From positions 1 through 64,000 of the forward strand of contig NZ_BJDW01000006.1 of assembly GCF_005405345.1 (NCBI RefSeq): DNA of 64,000 bases. The letters run 5' to 3'. Below are positions 4,306 through 20,613 of the stretch, piece by piece (the first letter of the stretch is position 1; each line of letters starts with the position of its first letter). Origin of the DNA: Enterococcus viikkiensis. Lineage in GTDB: Bacteria > Bacillota > Bacilli > Lactobacillales > Enterococcaceae. The position numbers and the translations under genes were made by a program. The notes under the pieces are model-generated. The model was not told the origin of the DNA and ran no database searches. It saw only the letters and a program-made list of their open reading frames with translations.

Positions 4306-6753
4306 TCACCCCATCCTCTCTTGAGCCGGCGGACGGGTATCAAAGGCATGGAAGAGTTCTTCAAAGACTGGATGAACTTGGACCACACCTACTCGACCAT
4401 ACAAATCTTGCATCAAGCATTGACCGTTTTCCAAATCTCGTAGACGTTTTTGATTGCTTTCATCTTCTTGATCTAAGCCAAAGAATTCCAAAGTTTTCTT
4501 GATTTCATGAATATCGGTACTTCGAAACGCAAATTTCAACCCGATATTATTTTTCAAGCGTTCATCCAGTAAGTCATCACTGTTTTGTGTGACAAAGTAA
4601 ACACCGGCATTCATGGCCCGACCAGCACGCACTAATTTATTCGATAACGTTTTTCCTTGCGCTACTTGAAGAAAACTCCACGCCTCATCCAGGTCCACAA
4701 TCTTGAAAATTTCTCGATTACTATGGATAAAGTCCAAGGCAAAAGTGGAAATGACGATTAGCATAGAAACACTAAGCAATTCCATGGTGGTATATTCTTC
4801 AAAAGTGGTTTCTGCATCTGGTAAAACCAAATCCGCTACTTGAATGATATTTAACTGCCTATCTAAACTAATCGACTGGGTAATCGAACCATCTGAGAAA
4901 AGCAAATGGGCAAAATCATAATCGGTAAAGGACTCGATGTGATCCGCGATATTTTCCGCAACTGGTGAGCCTTCTTTTCGAAGCTCATTAATTACTTGTA
5001 ATAATCCCCGTTGATTGCTTTGGGTAACCGTCCGAATGGCCTTACGCAACACTGGAAACTTCTCCCCATCTCGACTAGAAATTCCTGTTAAAAAGGTCAG
5101 AATATCAATTGCTAAACTTTCTGAGTCTTTCTTTTTCTTCATGATGACATAGGGATCAAGTAAGCCTTGATTTTTTGGCTTACTAGTTAAGTTGAGAATA
5201 TTGATTTCATCCGCAATTTCTGGCAAGGTTTCTTTCCAGCCACCCCGTTCCCCTTTTGGATCGACAATCACAGCTTGTCCACCAAAAAGGACGGCGTAAT
5301 AAACTAAGAGATTGTTACTAAAGGACTTTCCGCCACCGAGTGAACCAAGGAAAGCGGCGGCTAGCGCATTGGTAACTGAACCTTTTACCCCTTGTGAAGC
5401 CAAGGCCGGTTTCAGGTAAACATTTCGCCCCGTGTCCACGTTGTAGCCAAAGTAAATGCCTTCTAATTCTCCTAGCATCTGAGTAGCCCCAAAACCAAGT
5501 CCGGCGAGAAAATCAGAGGTAACATACTGAATATAGTCGTTCATGTAGCGTTTGCTTGAAGGTAAGAATTCTTCATGTAGCCCTATCATATCGCCAAAGG
5601 GCCGGACTAGTTTTACATTGGTATCATCATAAAAGTCAAGCACTTCATCACAGCGGCGTTTTAGTTCATCTACTGATTCGGCACTTACTCGAACCACATA
5701 ACTCAGTTTGTACATGGATTCTTTCGACTGATCCAAGGTGGTTTCCAATTCGTCCACAGAATCCAACGCATCTAAAACATTAGAATTTGTTTCATTGTCG
5801 GATTGATAGGCGTGATTGTCTAAATCTTTTAGTTCCTTTTTCTTATTGCGAACGGTGGCTAATGCCTTCTTGTTCGTCACAATCTCTACATTCATACTTG
5901 TGTCGATTGGGAATGTAAATTGTTGTTGCTGGTAATAGAAAAGTTCTGAGGAAGGAAACTCCATTTCCCCTACAATCGTATTGATTGTCAGATACGCTAC
6001 ATACGATTCATGATTTTCGTGTTCTATCCGTAAGTAACGAGGCTTTTCTTCAATCAAGCAACGACTGGGACGTAGAAGGTCATAACGTTTCACCAGCGTT
6101 TCGGATTTTAGCTTTTTCTTTGGTAGCTGAAATTCATATTCTTCAAACGGTGTACCTTTTTCACCATAGATATGTTCAATCAAATACGTCAGATCACTGG
6201 GAGTGACTCGTCTGACTTTAAATCTTCGAGTCAATTTATTTTCCATTAGTTTTTCAAGCTTGGTATATCGGCGAATTTCTTCATTAGATAAGGAAACAAA
6301 ATCACCCATTAGATGATGATTCACTCCATAGACAAATTCTTGAAGCCCAGAAAAGAAAGATTTCTTGAGACTCTTTAGATTTACTTCTTCATCTGTGGCA
6401 ATCAGTTTGAAGCCAATAAAAAAGCGATAATCAATCTGACTATCGCCAATCATGGATACTAATGCATCTGTCTGTAAATCAATTCGTTGTTTCGCGACTT
6501 CTTTGAGTCTACCGGTAATTTCCTTTTTCGATCGCTCTTGTGTGGCACGAATACTACTTTCCGTGGCAATTTGTAAGGCGTGAATCTTGCCTTCACGATT
6601 TTGTGCAATCAATTGGCGAAAGTTATCATGTACTTGATACTTCTGTTCAGGTGACAAAAAGGAGTAATTGTAAGGTATTAACTCATAGTAGGCAAAACAT
6701 TCTCCCTCTTGATTAAAGACAAGATTATTTTCAATATACTTAATCGGGTACAT
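4306..6753 (-). CDS. VirB4-like conjugation ATPase (Tn916 Orf16 family, TcpF)
   Basis: 815 residues. A P-loop (LGSLGGGKSFSNN, around residue 470), a Walker B-type segment (FKIVDLDEAWSF, about 675) and a conserved VTQNSDDLLD stretch mark a VirB4/TraE-family ATPase that powers assembly or substrate movement in the type IV secretion channel at the membrane. The first half (about 1-400) is the family's N-terminal region. Length agrees with Tn916 Orf16. The gene overlaps the orf17 homologue by 14 bases, a typical coupled arrangement. No frameshift is seen. Confidence 0.93.
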   Translation of the reverse strand: MYPIKYIENNLVFNQEGECFAYYELIPYNYSFLSPEQKYQVHDNFRQLIAQNREGKIHALQIATESSIRATQERSKKEITGRLKEVAKQRIDLQTDALVSMIGDSQIDYRFFIGFKLIATDEEVNLKSLKKSFFSGLQEFVYGVNHHLMGDFVSLSNEEIRRYTKLEKLMENKLTRRFKVRRVTPSDLTYLIEHIYGEKGTPFEEYEFQLPKKKLKSETLVKRYDLLRPSRCLIEEKPRYLRIEHENHESYVAYLTINTIVGEMEFPSSELFYYQQQQFTFPIDTSMNVEIVTNKKALATVRNKKKELKDLDNHAYQSDNETNSNVLDALDSVDELETTLDQSKESMYKLSYVVRVSAESVDELKRRCDEVLDFYDDTNVKLVRPFGDMIGLHEEFLPSSKRYMNDYIQYVTSDFLAGLGFGATQMLGELEGIYFGYNVDTGRNVYLKPALASQGVKGSVTNALAAAFLGSLGGGKSFSNNLLVYYAVLFGGQAVIVDPKGERGGWKETLPEIADEINILNLTSKPKNQGLLDPYVIMKKKKDSESLAIDILTFLTGISSRDGEKFPVLRKAIRTVTQSNQRGLLQVINELRKEGSPVAENIADHIESFTDYDFAHLLFSDGSITQSISLDRQLNIIQVADLVLPDAETTFEEYTTMELLSVSMLIVISTFALDFIHSNREIFKIVDLDEAWSFLQVAQGKTLSNKLVRAGRAMNAGVYFVTQNSDDLLDERLKNNIGLKFAFRSTDIHEIKKTLEFFGLDQEDESNQKRLRDLENGQCLMQDLYGRVGVVQVHPVFEELFHAFDTRPPAQERMG

Positions 6754-7129
6754 AGTTCACACTCCTTACAAGAGTAATGGGTTCATCCCATCGTTTCTTC
6801 TGTTCTTTGACTTTCTTTCCTGCAAAAGTGACCTTAAATCGCAAGTGATAACTAATAAAGGATCGTAAAAATCCCAATGGTTTCTTACCGTCAAACGTTT
6901 TTTGCGACATGAACCAAGTAACCGCCACCGGTATACCTAAGTATTTTAAAAATGTCCCCTCTATCATAGACAGCGGAGGCATATGGGCAAATACGATGAC
7001 AAACAGCAAGGATAAAACAAACCAAGCCATCTGGTTAAAAGTCACAGGAAAAGGCAGTTGAAAGTCATTAATCGCATAAATGACCTTTTCAACTGCCCAA
7101 ATACTGGTATAGCTTTTTATTTTTTTCAT
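6740..7129 (-). CDS. TcpE family conjugation membrane protein (Tn916 Orf17 family)
   Basis: 129 residues from the ATG at 7129 (MKKIKSYTSIW). A GTG at 7144 in the same frame would add five residues. Two hydrophobic helices (about 37-75) are followed by the conserved MSQKTFDGKKP segment and a basic tail ending SVNYVPD, as in Tn916 Orf17/TcpE, a small inner-membrane subunit of the conjugation channel. Its 3' end overlaps the VirB4-like gene by 14 bases. In Tn916 the next gene upstream is ardA (orf18); here a cargo island with an IS separates the two. Confidence 0.88.
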   Translation of the reverse strand: MKKIKSYTSIWAVEKVIYAINDFQLPFPVTFNQMAWFVLSLLFVIVFAHMPPLSMIEGTFLKYLGIPVAVTWFMSQKTFDGKKPLGFLRSFISYHLRFKVTFAGKKVKEQKKRWDEPITLVRSVNYVPD

Positions 7130-7151
7130 ATTCAATTGGCTCACTTTCTAA

Positions 7152-7157
7152 TATAAT
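7152..7157 (+). promoter_or_regulatory. -10 element of the HEPN-like cargo gene
   Basis: A perfect TATAAT lies 36 bases before the ATG at 7193, which has a strong AAGGAGG ribosome binding site. No good -35 box is visible at 16-18 bases; TTCAAT at 7131 is too close. The gene most likely has its own promoter in this 48-base divergent gap with orf17. Confidence 0.5.
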
Positions 7158-7192
7158 ATAAACATCATGCTTAATTTTTTAAGGAGGTACAT

Positions 7193-7921
7193 ATGCAAAA
7201 CTTAGTAACAATGGCAAGTGGAACACTTAACGAAGCTTACTCGGGAACTGAGATTGCAACTTTATTTGCTGAATATGGAGCAGAATTTAACGCTTCTGTT
7301 CCCTTTGTCTCAACTCCCTTTCCGAACTTTACTTCTAAGGCTACCGCGATTCAAAATAATTTACAAGCTTTCACAGAAGAACAGCAATTTAAAATTATAA
7401 AAGATCTTTGTGAAAGAGTGCTTACTCAAAATCCAGCAAATAAAGACGTTGCTAAGGTTTTAAAACTGTTACTAAAAAATTATGGTTCAGTTTATTCTAG
7501 TGATAAAATAGATAGAAATATCATCAATGAAACTAACACTTGGTTGGCTGCTTCCTCAAGAGCAAAAGAAGAGTTTGAAAAGGCCATACAGTCATACGAC
7601 AACAGCATCTATAACCGTTACACTTTAGATAGTATCAGGCTGGCCTTTGAGTTTTTTATGCAGGATATTTTAAAAAACTCAAAGTCTTTAGAAAACCAGC
7701 CTATCGATGGGGAACTTCTACCCTTATTGAGAAAAAAAGGCCTTCCAAAAGAAATAATCAATTTGGTCCGTTCAATTATCAAAGGACTTATAAGCTATCA
7801 AAATGAAAATGTTAAGCATAGTCAGACATTTACTGATCTAGAAGTAGAATTTGTTATTGAACAAACTAGCATTCTTATGAAGTTATTCGCAAAAATTGAA
7901 AAGATAGAAAAAGAGAGTTGA
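7193..7921 (+). CDS. Putative abortive-infection / HEPN-like protein (ICE cargo)
   Basis: 242 residues; the only cargo CDS here on the plus strand outside the IS. The N-terminal third (ALFAEYGAEFN-type and YG-rich segments, 20-100) resembles the small domains fused to HEPN in AbiJ-like proteins. The C-terminal part (about 140-235) has helices around RLAFEFFMQDIL and SKSLENQ, and NENVKH ending at His209. This fits a HEPN-fold Abi C-terminus, but the Arg of the classical R-x4-6-H RNase motif is not obvious, so it may be non-catalytic or use Asn. It converges on a second Abi-type gene and shares its terminator. A function in phage or plasmid exclusion is inferred. Confidence 0.5.
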   Translation: MQNLVTMASGTLNEAYSGTEIATLFAEYGAEFNASVPFVSTPFPNFTSKATAIQNNLQAFTEEQQFKIIKDLCERVLTQNPANKDVAKVLKLLLKNYGSVYSSDKIDRNIINETNTWLAASSRAKEEFEKAIQSYDNSIYNRYTLDSIRLAFEFFMQDILKNSKSLENQPIDGELLPLLRKKGLPKEIINLVRSIIKGLISYQNENVKHSQTFTDLEVEFVIEQTSILMKLFAKIEKIEKES

Positions 7922-7941
7922 TTTTTATCAACTCTCTTTTT
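7908..7941. terminator. Bidirectional terminator containing both stop codons
   Basis: Perfect 15-bp inverted repeat (7908-7922 and 7927-7941) with a TTTT loop. The A-rich and T-rich arms supply U-tracts in both directions. The TGA stops of the plus-strand HEPN-like gene (7919-7921) and the minus-strand Abi gene (7928-7930) lie inside the stem. Confidence 0.9.
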
Positions 7942-8429
7942 CATCACTACACCTTTTTCTCTTTTTATACTTTCGAAATAGATACTCACATAGAATCATC
8001 GCTGAATTCGCAGTAAGGATAGCTTCCTCTTCATTAATTGCAATCCTCTTAGAGCCCTGAGCATGGGCATCTCCTTGACTATTTCTCATCTCAAGAATTT
8101 TATCTGACAATGTATTTAGAGCCCCAACTAAAGCTTTTATTCTCTTATCCATATCTTTGTCAATTTTTATATTTAGCCTCTCAAAGACTTCATTTCTTAA
8201 ATCTTTAGATCTTACAATATTATTATCAATCTTTTTTCCCTTTGTGTTTTCGATGATATATTTCAAGACTTCATCAATCATAGTATTTGATTTTGTCAAA
8301 ACAGAATCGAAATCTTCATTTTGGATGTCCTTACTTATACGAGTTGGAAGTTGTTGAATATACTCTAAACTGACTTCCTTTGAAAATTTAGTTCCATTAA
8401 TTAATCTTACGCTATCCTTCTTCTGATAT
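7928..8429 (-). pseudogene. 3' part of an IS-split abortive-infection (Abi C-terminal HEPN) gene
   Basis: Open to the IS left end at 8430. It encodes 165 residues beginning QKKDSVRL when read from the target duplication. The segment MRNSQGDAHA carries an R-x6-H motif, followed by a long helix, as in the Abi_C/HEPN ribonuclease domain. A TTG at 8299 or an ATG at 8281 could start a fragment, but neither has a clear ribosome binding site. Joined to 10597-10925 after removing the IS and one GATAT copy, the frame is continuous. The split gene is probably inactive, although the HEPN part could be expressed from the IS end. See the 5' part at 10592. Confidence 0.82.
8425..8429. repeat. Target site duplication GATAT (left copy)
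   Basis: GATAT directly precedes the TGT terminus of the IS21-family element. The identical 5-mer follows the right end at 10592-10596. Confidence 0.9.
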
Positions 8430-8478
8430 TGTAAAGGGCCACGATAAAATGTAGGAAAAGGGCCATCGAAAATGTAGG
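8430..8478 (+). repeat. Left terminal repeat of the IS21-family element
   Basis: 49 bases starting TGTAAAGGGCCA. A second GGGCCA and a repeated AAAATGTAGG give the tandem-site layout of IS21 ends. It matches the inverted right end at 10543-10591. Confidence 0.88.
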
Positions 8479-8532
8479 TTAGATTTAAAATCTGATATTC
8501 TTTTTCATGAAACCATTCAAGGAGAGTGACTC

Positions 8533-9759
8533 ATGCGAAAAGATGTCTTAGAAGGAGTCTTACGACACATTATGAACGATATTCAACCTAACTATGCAGC
8601 CATGGCCAAGCAATATAATTGTGATTACCGAACAGTCAAGCGTTACTATGAAGCTGGAACTAAAGGGGAAGTAGAACAGATCAAAAAGAGACAATCTTCT
8701 GCTCCTCTTTTATTAAGCGGTTTTGAAGAAATTATTAAAGATAAAATGGAGTTAAGCTGTTCCGCTTCTTCAATTTATTATTTTATTAAGAAAAAAGGAT
8801 ATCAAGGTGGCTATACCACCGTCAAACGATATTGTCGGAACTATCGAGAAAAGCGTGTAAAAAAAGCAACCATTCGAATTGAAACGACGCCAGGTCTTTC
8901 TGCTCAAGTCGATTGGAAAGAAAATATTAAGATGGTGAGTAAACATGGTGAAGTCTTTTACTTCAATCTTTTTCTATATATTCTAGGCTATTCTCGCATG
9001 AAATACTTAGAGGTAACCTTTGATCGAACCCAAGCGAATGTCTTCAATTGTTTGGTCAATGCGTTTGAGTACTGCGGGAATGGTGTTCCTCAAGAAATTT
9101 GGTTTGACAATATGAAAACAGTTGTTGATAGAAGTAAAAGCCAATTTAGTCAAACCGTTTTTAACGAAAAATTTCGTCAATTTGCTAAAGATGCTGGATT
9201 CAATCCGATTGCTTGTCGCCCTTTTCGTCCACAAACCAAAGGCAAAGTTGAAGCTTTAGCTCGTACTGTTAACCGCTTAATGGTCTTTAACTACGAGTTT
9301 GAAAATGAGCAGGAGCTAAAACGAATCGTCTATGAGTTTATGAATGACTTAAATAATGAACGTTCTCAAGCAGTGAATAATCATCCCTCTAAGCTTCTTA
9401 TAGATGAACAATCGGTGTTGCGTCCTTTCAATCGTTTAGAATTAGTCAGATATGTTTCTAGAACCCAACACGTAATTAGAAAAGTTTCCATTGAATCCAT
9501 GGTCCAATATCAAAACTCAAAGTATTCTGTTCCCGTGAAATATATTGGTAAAGAGGTAACTTTAGATGTCCGTAAGGACAGTCTATTCATTTGGTATGGC
9601 CATCAATGTATTCGCTCGCACCCATTAAGCAAAAAAACCTTAAATTATCAACGTGATGACTCTCTTGAGATTCTTCGATCTGATGTCTTCAAATACTTAG
9701 AAGACGAAGAGTTGGAGCGCTTTGTAGAAGAAAATTTAGATGCTTACGATGAATTATAA
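8533..9759 (+). CDS. istA: IS21-family transposase IstA
   Basis: 408 residues. An N-terminal helix-turn-helix (about 18-45, YAAMAKQYNCDYRTVKRYY) binds the IS ends. The DDE integrase core has D127 (QVDWKE), D192 (IWFDNMK) and E240 (TKGKVEAL), followed by a C-terminal Mu-type beta domain. It catalyses cut-and-paste or circle-mediated transposition together with IstB. ATG at 8533 follows AAGGAGAGTGACTC. The full length and three catalytic residues are present, so the element should be active in principle. Confidence 0.96.
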   Translation: MRKDVLEGVLRHIMNDIQPNYAAMAKQYNCDYRTVKRYYEAGTKGEVEQIKKRQSSAPLLLSGFEEIIKDKMELSCSASSIYYFIKKKGYQGGYTTVKRYCRNYREKRVKKATIRIETTPGLSAQVDWKENIKMVSKHGEVFYFNLFLYILGYSRMKYLEVTFDRTQANVFNCLVNAFEYCGNGVPQEIWFDNMKTVVDRSKSQFSQTVFNEKFRQFAKDAGFNPIACRPFRPQTKGKVEALARTVNRLMVFNYEFENEQELKRIVYEFMNDLNNERSQAVNNHPSKLLIDEQSVLRPFNRLELVRYVSRTQHVIRKVSIESMVQYQNSKYSVPVKYIGKEVTLDVRKDSLFIWYGHQCIRSHPLSKKTLNYQRDDSLEILRSDVFKYLEDEELERFVEENLDAYDEL

Positions 9760-9769
9760 GGAGGCTCAT

Positions 9770-10531
9770 ATGTCAAATTACCATCAGTTATTAAATCAAT
9801 TATCAGATTTAAATCTTACCTGTATCAAAGAAATTTTACCTGCCCATTTAGATGAAGTAGCTAAAAATGAACAATCTCTAGTTGATTCTTTATTTGAATT
9901 AACACATCAAGAAATTAGCTATCGTAGAAAGGAGACCCAAAGAAAAATTTTAAAACGGGCAATGTTTCCCTATCATAAACGCCTTCATGATTTTAACTTT
10001 GATTTTCAACCCAAAATCAAAAAAAGTGAAATTCAAGATTTAGTGACATTACGCTTTTTAGACACGTATGACAACCTTTTATTCATTGGAAATAGCGGTG
10101 TTGGAAAAACCCATTTAGCCGTTTCAATTGGTTTAGAGTGTATTGATAGAGGGCAGAGCTGTTTATTTATCACTAGTACAGAACTGGTTAATCGACTTAT
10201 CCGGGCACATAAACGTGGGACAAGTGATACCATGCTCAAAAAATATGCGAGCTATTCTGTATTAATTATTGATGAAGTCGGGTATCTCCCCTTCTCAAAA
10301 GAAGGATCTAACTTACTGTTTCAACTAATTAATATGCGATACGAAAGAAAATCAACGATTATTACAACGAATATTCCTCTGTCTCAATGGTCCGAAATTT
10401 TTGGTAATAAGAAATTGACTAATGCTTTATTGGACCGATTGGTCCATCATTCTAAAATTATTCAAATTACAGGACCTTCCTATCGAATGAAAAGTTATAG
10501 TGAAACGAAAGGAAAAGAAACGAAACGATAA
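9770..10531 (+). CDS. istB: IS21-family helper ATPase IstB
   Basis: 253 residues from the ATG at 9770, which has AAGGAGG six bases upstream. An in-frame ATG at 9740 lies inside istA and lacks a site. Walker A (GNSGVGKTH) and Walker B (VLIIDEVG) plus the DnaC/IstB AAA+ core are visible, then a sensor segment (IITTNIPLSQW). IstB is the ATP-dependent target-selection and remodelling partner of IstA. It starts 10 bases after the istA stop, so the two are co-translated. Confidence 0.96.
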   Translation: MSNYHQLLNQLSDLNLTCIKEILPAHLDEVAKNEQSLVDSLFELTHQEISYRRKETQRKILKRAMFPYHKRLHDFNFDFQPKIKKSEIQDLVTLRFLDTYDNLLFIGNSGVGKTHLAVSIGLECIDRGQSCLFITSTELVNRLIRAHKRGTSDTMLKKYASYSVLIIDEVGYLPFSKEGSNLLFQLINMRYERKSTIITTNIPLSQWSEIFGNKKLTNALLDRLVHHSKIIQITGPSYRMKSYSETKGKETKR

Positions 10532-10542
10532 AGAGAAAACTA

Positions 10543-10591
10543 CCTACAATTTCAATGGCCCAAAACCAACATTTTATTATGGCCCTTGACA
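10543..10591 (-). repeat. Right terminal repeat of the IS21-family element
   Basis: Read on the minus strand it begins TGTCAAGGGCCA and repeats GGGCCA about 30 bases further in, mirroring the left end. It ends exactly at the GATAT duplication. Confidence 0.88.
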
Positions 10592-10596
10592 GATAT
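10592..10596. repeat. Target site duplication GATAT (right copy)
   Basis: Second copy of the 5-base duplication made on IS insertion; the first is at 8425-8429. Confidence 0.9.
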
Positions 10597-10925
10597 GCCT
10601 CTTCAATCAATAGGGTTACAATTGGATTCATTTTAGGCGGTTTATAATCGCTTGGATTTTCAAATTGGCGGATGGCGGTGATTTGCTTCATAGTTTCGTT
10701 TAATGAATATATTAATTTGAACTTTATGTGATCACTAATATCCTCTGAGACAAGAAATTCTTTGAAGGAATTTCCTTTAGAGCCACCAAATCTTTCTTGA
10801 ATTCCAAATCCAACTATTTTCTTAGTATATAGATCCCATTCGAGGTTACTGAACTCCAATATATATCCAGGAGAGCCGTCTGAAAAATAATTTGCAAGCT
10901 GTTTAGCCTCATCAATATTCACCAC
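10592..10925 (-). pseudogene. 5' part of the IS-split abortive-infection gene
   Basis: Encodes about 111 residues ending IEEAY before the IS. The native frame then continued into the part at 7928-8429, giving about 276-278 residues in total. The start is a GTG: 10925 and 10922 sit 5-8 bases after AAAGGAG, better than the first GTG at 10931. The N-terminal region shows acidic and aromatic segments (NYFSDG, WDLYTKKIVGFG) and helical stretches, with no catalytic motif I recognise. As it stands, translation would run into the IS end and finish with a 41-residue foreign tail, so the product is probably non-functional. Confidence 0.82.
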
Positions 10926-10959
10926 TTCCACTCCTTTGAAATACTACTCGATATTTTCT

Positions 10960-10988
10960 ATTGTAGTATCTTTAAGGGCAGTATTCAA
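10960..10988 (-). promoter_or_regulatory. Sigma-A promoter of the split Abi gene
   Basis: On the minus strand TTGAAT (10983-10988), a 17-base spacer and TACAAT (10960-10965) lie just upstream of the Abi start and just downstream of the ardA stop. The cargo gene therefore has its own promoter independent of the transfer operon. Confidence 0.65.
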
Positions 10989-10995
10989 TATACTC

Positions 10996-11499
10996 TCACT
11001 CACATAGCTCAAAGACCCCACGACTCGTAACCAAATAATTGCCTCCAATCTCCAAATCTCGACCACACGCATCAAAATCAATATACGTCTTCAAATGTTC
11101 CGGTACTTCTCCAAAATCACCAGCTTCCACAATCAAGTAATACGCTACATCACTCATATCATTACAATCGGGATAACAAATAATATCATCCACATGCTCC
11201 ACCATCTCCTCAAAAGAATTGAAAAAAGCGTGCTGAATCTCTAAAGCAACCTCGCCAATCGGCGTTCCTTCTAATTCCTCTGCTAAACCACATAACCGAT
11301 TAATTTCCTCAATTGGTGTATACTCATCAATCTCAAAAGGCAGTTCATAATCATGAATCGCATATTCTTCATATTCGTCAATTAATCCAATCCGTTCTTT
11401 CACTTCATCAAAATCGATAGGTGGGGTAAACCACGCCCCCACCAATTCACCTTCATTGTATTTTCCAAGGTTCGCAATATAAACACGCATCTGTTCCAT
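10996..11499 (-). CDS. ardA: Antirestriction protein ArdA (Tn916 Orf18 family)
   Basis: 167 residues, very acidic throughout with regularly placed Asp/Glu, the signature of ArdA. These dimers imitate B-form DNA and block type I restriction-modification enzymes as the element enters a new cell. RVYIANLGKYNEG at the N-terminus and the central EEMVEHVDD segment fit Tn916 Orf18. The ATG at 11499 has AAGGGGG seven bases upstream; a second ATG is at 11490. In Tn916 it is followed by orf17; here the Abi/IS cargo has been inserted after it. Confidence 0.95.
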   Translation of the reverse strand: MEQMRVYIANLGKYNEGELVGAWFTPPIDFDEVKERIGLIDEYEEYAIHDYELPFEIDEYTPIEEINRLCGLAEELEGTPIGEVALEIQHAFFNSFEEMVEHVDDIICYPDCNDMSDVAYYLIVEAGDFGEVPEHLKTYIDFDACGRDLEIGGNYLVTSRGVFELCE

Positions 11500-17385: not shown

Positions 17386-20300
17386 TTAGTTCCGGCGATT
17401 CCATAAATAATAGCCAGCCGTCGCAAAGATTAAAGTAAAACCAATGAACAGTAACACACTGGAATTTTTCTCCCCAGTTTGTGGGAATTTCTTCACTGTA
17501 GGGCTAGATTCTTGAGAGTCACTTGGAATAGTTGGTGTTTCCGGTTGTTCTGGCGTACTTGGTGTAGTTGGCACTTCTTTTGGTGTTAAGGTTTGAGATT
17601 TTTCTTTTAGATCCTCATTGTGTTTTCCATTCACGTTTCCATCTTTGTCGTAGTTAATTTCTTTAAAGGTAAAACTTGTGCCTTCTGGATATTTACTTGT
17701 GTCCACTTTTTCTGCAAGTACGGTTTTGGTAAATTCTTTGTCATTCACTTCGTAATCAATTTTGCCAGATTTCCAAATCTCTTTGTTCGTACCATCCGGT
17801 AATAAGGCGTACAGAATTGTTTCGAAAGCTTCTTTTGAGCCATCTAGTACATCATGAGTAATCGATACATCATCAAACATATCCACCACGTCACCATGAG
17901 TAAAGGTCTGAGAATCGTCTTCTAAGTGGGCTTTGGTTTGGATGGAAACATGACGTTCCACTGCACAATTGACAGTTTGGGCTTGATTATTCAAGCTAGC
18001 ATCCTTCGCTACTGGCTCGTCACCTGCTTCAAAGGCTTCCTTGTTTTCATACACATAGTTGAATAAGACGATGGTTTTATCCAAAACTTGTTCGGCGGTT
18101 AATTTATGCAGAATTTCCCAAGTTCCTGTTTTCTCTTTGTTCGCCAAGGTGGCCGTCGTTTCGGCAATCACGACTGGTTTGGCTTTTTCATCTTTTTCTT
18201 GAGCAGCTTTTGTCGCCTCCACATCAATGGCTTGCGCTACGATATACCAGTCTTCTTTAATTTCATGCAAGTTATAGCTCAACTTATCAACTAGCTCGGT
18301 AGAATCAAGAGTAGTCAATTCTTTGTCTCCGTCTTTCCAGGTCGCAAGAGAAGTTAGACTATCTTCTTCCTCAGGCAAATCATAGAGCATTAAACGATTC
18401 AAACTAACGGAGAATTCTTTGCTCGTCAGCTTCTCGTAAGGAACGGTCACCGTTTTAATTGGTTGTTTTTGACCTTGTTCGGTAATGGTAAACATGTATT
18501 CACTCTTGGTGTAATCCTCTTTATTTTCCTTAAAAGTAGAACGAATTTCTAATGGTGTAATCTTTTGAAATCCTTCTGGGGCTTCTACTTCTTCAAGTAA
18601 ATAATCCCCATAAGGAAGATTTTCAAACTTGCCATAGCCATCAAAACCTAGTTGCTCGTTATAAGCTGTGGTCGCTTCATCTTCAGCGCCTGTGATTTCA
18701 TTGGTTCCTTCCAATGGCGATACTTTAAAGGTTAAGTCATTAAACCCAGTTTCGGCAGTGCCCGCAGCTGATCCAGCAAATTTGAAGAAATCAAAGACAA
18801 AACGAATCACTTGTTCTTTTGCCGTAACATCTCGAGTAATCACAGCATTTTTTTCGCTATCATCCACCTTTTTGATGGATACAGGATACTTCGTTTCATC
18901 CAAGGTATACCCTTCAGGTGCTTTGGTTTCTTGCCAGTAGTACTCGTTGATGGCTAAGTGTTTAACGGCAGCTTGATTCTTTTCATCTAAAGTCAAAGTC
19001 ACCGTTTCATCAGAAGCCTTCGTTCCTTTCACTAATTCTGGTTTAAAAGCCTCACCCCATTTAACCGCTTGACCATCTTTTGCAGTAAAGAGAGTATATT
19101 CAGCTCCTTTAAACTCCGCTTTCCCTTGAGTCTCATTACCGGTATCTTTGTCTTCTTTCGTCAAAGTGGTTTCACCAGTAATTTCCTGGTTTTGCCCTTT
19201 TACGTTACTGGTCACAAGGGCTACCGTTTGATTGGCATACTCCAATTCAACTTTTACTGGTTTGAAAGTATTCACGAAGCCATTAGCTGCTTTGGTTTCT
19301 GTCACATAATAGGTTCCCAATTCCAACGCGTCAGCAATCTCTTTTGGTGTTTCCGCATGACCCTTTTCATCCGTGGTCATTTCTTGAATAATTTCACCAG
19401 TTGGACTGTCTTTGCGAATGGCAAACGTATTGCCAGCTAAAGAATAATTGTCGTTCCAAAGATCATTCCCTGTTTCAACTCCCGTTTTATCCAGAATGAT
19501 TTGACCTTTTTCTCGCGTATTTTTTGAAGTCACAGAAATGGTTTCACCTGCTTTAATCATGGCAGTCATAGGTGTGGTATCAATCGTATAAGGCGCCGGC
19601 ACCGATTTTTCAGTAATGGTTACTTTTGTTCCGTGAGGAATCCCATCTAAGGTAGCAATGCCTTCTTTGTCAGTAGTCACGTCTTTTGCAGGCAAAGTTT
19701 TTCCAAATTCTAAATGGAAAATCGTTCCTGGTACAACATCACCTGATTCTTTATCGACTTTTTTAATCTTTAAAGAACCCTTAGTTTCCACATCAATTTT
19801 GATCGTGTAAGTGTTCGGTTTATCAATTGCCCCGGCCATCAAGGTCTGTTGTCCAGCCATCTTGTAAGCTACCGGTGTTCCAGTTCCAGCAGATTTCTTA
19901 AGCGTCAACACACCGCTTTCTTTTGAATTGGTATTAGGTGTGATAACCAATTGATTGCCATTGACACGATAATCAATATTTGCGGTGTTTTCCACAACAT
20001 CATCGAACTCTGACAAATTCAAATTATTCGTGTCCGTTACAGTAGTTGATTGACCTAACACTGTTTTAGCCGTGCTATTATGGAAGCTTGGTTTCTTCTG
20101 ATAATCGGCAATGGCTTGATTAATTTTTGCCTCAATAGCTGGGATATTTACGGCACTGCCATCTGGATGCTTCATAGAGTGAAGCGTATACCCATTGACC
20201 TCCTGCCAGATCATCTTTTGAGCAACCATTTGTGTATCAATATCTGTACCGGCGTTTTTCCATAACACTGAAACTAATTTGGCTTTCTCCGACATATCAG

Positions 20301-20613
20301 GCAATGGATTTTTCTCATAACCTGGCGTGAACTCATTGTAAATTGGCACTCCCGGTTCGATACAGAAAATATCTTGTTTCTCCCCATTATAGATAGCATA
20401 GTGAGGAACAGTTACCTCAGATAATGTTCGACCATCACTGAACGTCCCTTCGACCGAATATAAGTGCGACAAATCGCAGTGCACAGTCACTGTTTGCGGA
20501 TGAGTAATTTCATCAGCAAAGGCAATCGTAGGACCAATCGCTCCGCCAATTGTTTGACCCAACAGAGCTAAAGTCGCAAATAATCGCCAATTTTTAAATC
20601 TCAGCTTTTTCAT
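17386..20613 (-). CDS. LPXTG-type surface adhesin with thioester domain and Cna-B/SpaA repeats
   Basis: 1075 residues. Signal peptide about 1-33. An N-terminal TQXA thioester domain (about 40-170) has Cys84 in FCIEPG and TQ127-128 in TQMVAQKMIW, residues that can form an internal Cys-Gln thioester for covalent host or cell binding. Several Cna-B/SpaA-type domains follow from about 275, with recurrent KK-D...G and Y-V-E-T-KAP-G-type endings that suggest isopeptide cross-links. Then come a Pro/Thr linker, sortase signal FPQTGE (1043-1048), a hydrophobic helix and the RRN tail. ATG at 20613 after AAAGGAG. As the first large gene of the transfer operon it probably helps mating-cell contact. A terminator-like hairpin lies directly upstream. 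Confidence 0.93.
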   Translation of the reverse strand: MKKLRFKNWRLFATLALLGQTIGGAIGPTIAFADEITHPQTVTVHCDLSHLYSVEGTFSDGRTLSEVTVPHYAIYNGEKQDIFCIEPGVPIYNEFTPGYEKNPLPDMSEKAKLVSVLWKNAGTDIDTQMVAQKMIWQEVNGYTLHSMKHPDGSAVNIPAIEAKINQAIADYQKKPSFHNSTAKTVLGQSTTVTDTNNLNLSEFDDVVENTANIDYRVNGNQLVITPNTNSKESGVLTLKKSAGTGTPVAYKMAGQQTLMAGAIDKPNTYTIKIDVETKGSLKIKKVDKESGDVVPGTIFHLEFGKTLPAKDVTTDKEGIATLDGIPHGTKVTITEKSVPAPYTIDTTPMTAMIKAGETISVTSKNTREKGQIILDKTGVETGNDLWNDNYSLAGNTFAIRKDSPTGEIIQEMTTDEKGHAETPKEIADALELGTYYVTETKAANGFVNTFKPVKVELEYANQTVALVTSNVKGQNQEITGETTLTKEDKDTGNETQGKAEFKGAEYTLFTAKDGQAVKWGEAFKPELVKGTKASDETVTLTLDEKNQAAVKHLAINEYYWQETKAPEGYTLDETKYPVSIKKVDDSEKNAVITRDVTAKEQVIRFVFDFFKFAGSAAGTAETGFNDLTFKVSPLEGTNEITGAEDEATTAYNEQLGFDGYGKFENLPYGDYLLEEVEAPEGFQKITPLEIRSTFKENKEDYTKSEYMFTITEQGQKQPIKTVTVPYEKLTSKEFSVSLNRLMLYDLPEEEDSLTSLATWKDGDKELTTLDSTELVDKLSYNLHEIKEDWYIVAQAIDVEATKAAQEKDEKAKPVVIAETTATLANKEKTGTWEILHKLTAEQVLDKTIVLFNYVYENKEAFEAGDEPVAKDASLNNQAQTVNCAVERHVSIQTKAHLEDDSQTFTHGDVVDMFDDVSITHDVLDGSKEAFETILYALLPDGTNKEIWKSGKIDYEVNDKEFTKTVLAEKVDTSKYPEGTSFTFKEINYDKDGNVNGKHNEDLKEKSQTLTPKEVPTTPSTPEQPETPTIPSDSQESSPTVKKFPQTGEKNSSVLLFIGFTLIFATAGYYLWNRRN

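What the first reader, a model, noticed from the sequence alone, without database searches (positions are those of the whole stretch)
7928..10931. Abortive-infection gene split by an IS21 element; the intact frame can be rebuilt exactly
The 5' part ends ...IEEAY at the right GATAT duplication, and the 3' part opens QKKDSV at the left one. Removing bases 8430-10591 and one GATAT joins the frames without a shift into one 278-codon gene with an R-x6-H (RNSQGDAH, about R227-H234) HEPN/Abi_C motif. Two fragments that look like unrelated hypothetical genes are one defence gene switched off by transposition. IS21 elements can leave precisely only rarely, so this may be a snapshot of defence loss on a mobile element.
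Basis: partly seen in the sequence, partly recalled or inferred. Interest (0 to 1): 0.75.

Follow-up and report, generated by a model that had tools for sequence, protein, structure and literature searches.

The report
Jumping gene broke phage-defence gene
A transposable element has landed inside a likely anti-virus (abortive-infection) gene carried by a mobile bacterial DNA element; unbroken copies exist in related elements, and the spot where the gene sits looks like a changeable socket for defence genes.

Summary
A 2162-bp IS21-family element (8430-10591) with 5-bp GATAT target copies splits one gene on the minus strand. Two related ICEs, one in Enterococcus gallinarum, carry the gene unbroken (278 codons) at the same place; the window's two flanks map onto them overlapping by exactly 5 bp. 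The product is an AbiJ-type HEPN protein: unassigned N-terminal half, Abi_C/AbiJ C-terminal half with R-x6-H. The insertion parts the two; the 3' piece has no good start, so the gene is most likely off. No stop or frameshift has built up, so the hit is recent. The gene is also broken in other enterococcal genomes and plasmids, mostly beside IS1216/IS6-type elements. Next to it a second defence candidate (PADLOC PDC-S32) is intact. The gap between ardA and orf17 of this Tn916-like ICE is a variable cargo slot: of 32 related places examined (of 54 found) 6 are empty, 25 hold cargo, 1 is unresolved; 11 of the 25 hold known or candidate defence modules (Gabija, CBASS, Lamassu, Iet, PDC). No listing or passage I saw names this slot. 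The knock-out is ordinary; the slot is the better lead. Anti-phage function is inferred, not tested.

The parts
10592..10931 (-). 5' part of the AbiJ-type gene (codons 1-113; true start probably codon 3 or 4); runs on in frame into the IS as a 154-codon ORF
   Evidence: 93% identical to L018 residues 1-113
7928..8429 (-). 3' part of the AbiJ-type gene with the Abi_C/HEPN domain and RNSQGDAH; first start codon in frame is a TTG at 8299 without a Shine-Dalgarno box
8430..10591 (+). IS21-family insertion sequence, 2162 bp, imperfect terminal repeats TGTAAAGGGCC / TGTCAAGGGCC
   Evidence: one copy in the genome
8533..9759 (+). istA, IS21 transposase, 408 aa
   Evidence: NF033546 228.5 bits, cut-off 160
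9740..10531 (+). istB, helper ATPase, 263 aa
   Evidence: NF038214 267.9 bits, cut-off 200
8425..8429 (.). target duplication GATAT, left copy
10592..10596 (.). target duplication GATAT, right copy
7193..7921 (+). intact neighbour, 242 aa, PADLOC phage-defence candidate PDC-S32, converging with the abi gene
   Evidence: PDLC04998 1.1e-53, profile 1-232 of 237; 94% identical copies in L018 and L019
7910..7939 (.). perfect 10-bp inverted repeat with A and T runs on its two sides: probable shared two-way terminator between the converging genes
   Evidence: read from the sequence; activity not tested
10996..11499 (-). ardA (orf18), right border of the cargo slot
   Evidence: PF07275 1.5e-41
6740..7144 (-). 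orf17-like conjugation gene, left border of the cargo slot
   Evidence: homology and gene order; orf17 is virB3-like by PMC9632896 (passage)

Best explanation
A Tn916-like ICE carries two converging defence genes between ardA and orf17: PDC-S32 (intact) and an AbiJ-type abortive-infection gene. In intact relatives the AbiJ-type protein would be an N-terminal sensing half joined to a C-terminal HEPN RNase half; on phage infection it would cut RNA and stop the cell (inferred from the family). An IS21-family element inserted at codon 113, ahead of the HEPN match, duplicating GATAT. The 5' piece can still be translated but lacks the RNase; the 3' piece keeps the RNase motif but has lost its start and, if begun at its TTG, the first 28 residues of the AbiJ match. 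The gene is therefore off, and recently so, while its neighbour is kept. Shown: the split, the target copies, the intact relatives, the absence of decay, the domain matches. Inferred: RNase activity, phage trigger, loss of phenotype.
For: IS limits, target copies and empty site. Intact orthologues in the same gene order in L018 and L019, 91-93% identical over both halves, and more distant full-length relatives. Abi_C and AbiJ matches; R-x6-H invariant in 6 of 6. AbiJ proteins are HEPN domains behind varied N-terminal domains (PMC3710099, passages). Foldseek ranks 1-3 are HEPN-type structures (2q00, 3o10), though not at a significant E-value. dN/dS of the halves 0.08-0.10, within the 0.03-0.18 of five neighbouring genes, no stop in either half. 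No start codon upstream of TTG 8299 in the 3' frame and no Shine-Dalgarno box before it.
Against: No functional test. The AbiJ profile is matched only over its second half (142-279 of 281); the N-terminal 113 residues match no Pfam family at E 1. The AF2 model is poor (mean pLDDT 50.9, pTM 0.45); 0 of 332 Foldseek matches reach E 0.001 and unrelated helical proteins such as OspC stand at ranks 4 and 5. Residual activity of the pieces cannot be excluded from sequence.
Confidence: 0.88

Rival explanations
1. The 3' piece is still expressed, from the IS end or the TTG at 8299, as a free HEPN domain, so the insertion uncouples the RNase from its sensor rather than killing the gene.
For: The frame runs on into the IS without a stop (open frame 200 codons) and the 123-codon ORF from 8299 keeps the Abi_C match.
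Against: No ATG, GTG or TTG in that frame before 8299 and no Shine-Dalgarno box there; a start at 8299 (codon 156) loses residues 128-155 of the AbiJ match. An ungoverned RNase should be costly (inference).
Confidence: 0.06
2. The two fragments are two separate genes that happen to flank an IS.
For: Each is an ORF of its own in the window.
Against: One uninterrupted gene in L018, L019 and in more distant relatives; exact 5-bp overlap of the flanks.
Confidence: 0.01
3. The gene is not anti-phage but a costly addiction or regulatory function of the element, and its loss adapts the ICE.
For: In the five plasmid loci opened the relative lies beside a RelE/ParE-HTH pair (annotated in four; seen as ORFs in the fifth). 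It is broken in several lineages.
Against: AbiJ profile match and PDC-S32 beside it; known or candidate defence modules in 11 of 25 occupied slots.
Confidence: 0.15

Closest known systems
AbiJ abortive-infection family (HEPN; Pfam Abi_C PF14355)
   Same: C-terminal half matches AbiJ and Abi_C, R-x6-H motif, on a mobile element
   Different: N-terminal half matches no Pfam family; activity not tested; the window copy is split
IS21 family (for example IS712 of Lactococcus, IS21-like elements of Listeria plasmids)
   Same: istA and istB, TG...CA ends, 5-bp target copy, end-to-end match at 78% to Listeria copies
   Different: no plasmid record at 95% identity or more; otherwise nothing notable
Defence cargo of ICEs, such as the spbK abortive-infection gene of ICEBs1 (PMC9632896, passage)
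   Same: an ICE carrying an anti-phage gene as cargo
   Different: here the cargo lies between ardA and orf17 and differs from ICE to ICE
Defence hotspots of Pseudomonas aeruginosa and E. coli genomes (PMC10250203, PMC10121019; search listings only)
   Same: constant borders, changing defence modules
   Different: inside the conjugation gene run of an ICE, where Tn916 itself has terminators T2a/T2b (PMC11658703, passages)

Membership tests
AbiJ | HEPN R-x4-6-H motif | tested here: met
   RNSQGDAH; R227 and H234 invariant in 6 of 6 aligned relatives, present in the window 3' part
AbiJ | AbiJ / Abi_C profile match in the C-terminal half | tested here: met
   PDLC02347 1.3e-37 on P0003 residues 128-268; PF14355 65.1 bits, cut-off 24
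AbiJ | one of the described N-terminal domains in front of HEPN | tested here: inconclusive
   no Pfam family at E 1 for the N-terminal 113 residues or for residues 1-188 of P0003; the paper's NTD1-5 alignments were not at hand
AbiJ | HEPN helical fold | tested here: inconclusive
   model pLDDT 50.9; best Foldseek matches HEPN-type but none at E 0.001
AbiJ | blocks phage growth | not testable with these tools
   needs a phage assay
IS21 | istA transposase and istB helper over curated cut-offs | tested here: met
   NF033546, NF038214
IS21 | terminal inverted repeats and short target duplication | tested here: met
   target copy confirmed on intact relatives
IS21 | transposes | not testable with these tools
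   both ORFs are open
Tn916-family ICE | conjugation gene order with ardA, Rep_trans and orf16/17 homologues | tested here: met
   the orf numbers are recalled from Tn916 and agree with PMC9632896 passages
Tn916-family ICE | own integrase and excisionase | not tested
   the contig begins in an IS end at window base 1
PDC-S32 (PADLOC candidate) | full-length profile match | tested here: met
   1.1e-53, 1-232 of 237; a candidate only, no paper holds the name

The most novel reading that the evidence does not exclude
The gap between ardA and orf17 of Tn916-family ICEs (where Tn916 itself has terminators T2a/T2b) is a dedicated socket for phage-defence modules inside the conjugation gene run. A module can sit there if its transcription is kept off orf17-orf16, which are lethal when expressed in B. 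subtilis: either it ends in a terminator or its last gene points away. Modules change from ICE to ICE and are knocked out by IS elements while the ICE lives on.
Probability: 0.6. Interest if true: 0.65.

Novelty: new member of a known kind. Interest (0 to 1): 0.45.

Why it matters
It turns two anonymous fragments into one recent loss of a likely defence gene on a mobile element, with intact relatives, one in a named type-collection strain, to compare against. It also points to a defined place where unnamed genes stand in for known defence systems: 14 of 25 occupied slots have no full-length match to a known or candidate system, so they are places to look for new ones.

Tried and rejected
Viral contigs: no relative of the gene or of PDC-S32. 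Solved structures by sequence: one chance match at E 0.33 for the gene, none for PDC-S32. PDC-S32 in plasmids: no match. A tetracycline-protection gene in the genome: 0 matches over the family cut-off (the sub-threshold matches are also seen in all 14 control genomes); the window ORF lists showed me no drug-resistance gene, by eye. A recently recombined cargo block: identity to L018 is 92.5-97% over 7106-7905 and 81.5-96.5% over the other stretches, too little contrast to claim it. Literature for the slot: (listings) and passages of PMC12479173, PMC11658703 and PMC9632896; nothing that I saw names it, but the library holds open-access papers only and I did not read the other papers listed. Host species: not obtained.

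Full report
The split gene. The window holds an IS21-family element at 8430-10591: istA 8533-9759 and istB 9740-10531 score over the NCBIfam cut-offs, the ends are imperfect inverted repeats, and Listeria plasmid IS21 elements align with it from its first to its last base at about 78%. GATAT stands on both sides. The element is single-copy in the genome.

Intact relatives. A search of 147 genomes with the 3' part found matches in 12, the window's own included. Two, G021 (L018) and G024 (L019), carry one uninterrupted 278-codon gene in the same place of the same kind of ICE, 91-93% identical to both halves of the window gene. The window's left and right flanks map on each relative with an overlap of exactly 5 bp, GATAT, which shows a simple insertion. 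A scan of genome contigs gave 5 loci, all near full length (L030-L034: one E. gallinarum at 99%, four Enterococcus or Vagococcus at 61-62%); its search peptides both lie in the N-terminal part, so it could not find copies that lack that part. Plasmid relatives are annotated as abortive infection family protein.

What the gene is. The C-terminal half matches Abi_C and the PADLOC AbiJ profile; R-x6-H is invariant in 6 of 6 aligned relatives. The passages that I read of PMC3710099 describe AbiJ as a HEPN RNase domain behind varied N-terminal domains. The N-terminal 113 residues match nothing in Pfam at E 1. A model of the intact relative is weak (pLDDT 50.9); its first three Foldseek matches are HEPN-type structures (2q00 is listed as HEPN in PMC3710099), but 0 of 332 matches reach E 0.001. 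The insertion, at codon 113, lies ahead of the AbiJ match (residues 128-268 of P0003).

State of the pieces. The 5' piece keeps its start and Shine-Dalgarno box and runs 41 codons into the IS. The 3' piece has no start codon before TTG 8299 (codon 156) and no Shine-Dalgarno box there. Each half has dN/dS 0.08-0.10 against L018 and L019, within the 0.03-0.18 of five neighbouring genes, and no stop or gap, so the hit is recent compared with the split of these ICEs.

Other breaks of the same gene. In the family scan (14 of 105 genomes with any match, several of them short or distant) close copies are full length in G020, G021, G024, G073 and G081; broken in the window, in G037 (begins about codon 162-167 beside an IS6-type transposase, partly masked) and in G074 (remnant with a stop and indels, no IS seen). 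In plasmids, 66 enterococcal or vagococcal records hold the 3' part and 62 the 5' part (60 rows listed in each, the totals are the tool's); I did not pair them record by record, but 61 of 75 records hold at least 80% of the whole protein in one place. Four records with a short match were opened: CP102071 and CP030934 (IS1216, the same break, about codon 138-143), CP066674 (IS1216, about codon 220) and LR961976 (unannotated IS6-type transposase, about codon 225). With G037 that makes four further IS-linked breaks at different codons. IS1216 can cut into many enterococcal genes (recalled), and I have no control gene, so I do not claim that this gene is hit more than others.

The neighbour. 7193-7921 matches PADLOC PDC-S32 nearly end to end, is kept at 94% in L018 and L019, and converges with the abi gene on a shared 10-bp hairpin. 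On plasmids the abi gene has other neighbours (RelE/ParE, HTH, DUF4062) and PDC-S32 has no match there, so the two look like separate systems that share a place.

The slot. The orf17 homologue was found in 38 of 105 family genomes at 54 places. I examined 32 of 54: the 30 loci returned plus two more; the other 22 were not looked at. All 21 places at 92% orf17 identity or more in that table are among them. ardA abuts orf17 in 6 (L069, L071, L075-L078). L090 is unresolved (its contig begins just upstream). In the other 25 something lies between. ardA was found on the far side in 20 of 20 stretches fetched with longer flanks, 0.65-4.4 kb away. PADLOC gives a full-length match for at least one gene of the module in 11 of 25: PDC-S32 with AbiJ-type (window, L062, L066), Gabija GajA+GajB (L065), Iet (L067; IetA full, IetS partial), CBASS cyclase+E1-E2+JAB+2TM (L068), Lamassu (L072, L079, L109), PDC-M49 (L074), PDC-S06 (L088). 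L066 and L079 were not scanned themselves; they are near copies of L062 and L072 (first 90 residues). L063 (SMC-like) and L086 (nSTAND3) have partial PADLOC matches. Twelve have none: the 204+190-aa pair (L064, L073; L110 not scanned itself), L070, L080 (DUF4365), L081, L082, and the 339-350-aa family (L083, L087, L089 scanned; L084 and L085 are identical to L083). Control: 1 of 10 chromosomal window proteins has any PADLOC match at 1e-5, a partial one to a histidine kinase. That control is small and not matched to mobile-element genes, which are richer in defence genes anyway.

Borders and a rule. The DNA changes right at the 3' end of ardA and just before orf17. Tn916 has terminators T2a/T2b downstream of orf18, and its orf17 begins 88 bp after ardA (PMC11658703, PMC9632896, passages). 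Together orf17 and orf16 kill B. subtilis, a killing that depends on the host gene yqaR of the skin element, so it may not hold in enterococci. A hairpin with a T run stands within 110 bp before orf17 in 13 of 17 slots whose last gene points at orf17, in 0 of 6 whose last gene points away (window, L018, L019, L092, L098, L110) and in 5 of 6 empty ones; shuffled sequences gave 47 of 580. Fisher one-sided 0.002 is only indicative: I set the criterion after seeing the sequences, the six divergent slots are two kinds of module, and several co-oriented ones are related.

More damage in the slot. In L092 the 204-aa gene of the pair is split by an ISL3-type element, and in L110 the 190-aa gene is frameshifted, which could also be a sequencing error. 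With the window this makes three damaged modules among 25; the others were not checked for subtler damage.

Judgement. The finding is right and the knock-out is of an ordinary kind. The slot is the part a specialist would want to follow.

Noticed in passing
6740-11499 and loci L061-L110: The gap between orf17 and ardA of Tn916-like ICEs is a variable cargo slot (Gabija, CBASS, Lamassu, Iet, PDC modules, unnamed genes, or empty).
   Followed up: partly
L098:8745-9947, L092, L110: Unnamed pair of 204- and 190-aa genes pointing away from orf17 in the slot; split by an ISL3-type element in L092 and frameshifted in L110. Possible new defence pair.
   Followed up: partly
L104:582-1607 (relatives in L106, L108): 339-350-aa protein family alone in the slot at five places; no PADLOC match in the three scanned, no Pfam match in the one scanned (L104).
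   Followed up: no
L018 14085-16654; L019 11169-13809: Group II intron type reverse-transcriptase ORFs (recognised by eye) interrupt the FtsK-like coupling gene (L018) and the DNA methyltransferase gene (L019) of the sister ICEs; both genes are whole in the window.
   Followed up: partly
L018 9761-11011: 416-aa transposase-like ORF (IS110-like by eye) between orf19 and the rep gene.
   Followed up: no
L029 (OR846638): 13.2 of 16.6 kb of the record filed as Enterococcus phage Efs 1-1-1 match the L018 ICE at 99.98%; it is most likely an ICE fragment, not a phage.
   Followed up: yes
1-84: The contig begins in an IS end of about 80 bp that recurs at 17 other places of this genome, many of them contig ends; the left part of the ICE is cut off there.
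   Followed up: no
17386-20613: ICE-borne 1075-aa LPXTG surface protein with SpaA and TQ ester-bond domains.
   Followed up: no
L028 6001-8609: On an E. faecalis plasmid the AbiJ-type gene is followed by RelE/ParE, HTH and DUF4062 genes, a different neighbourhood from the ICE.
   Followed up: partly
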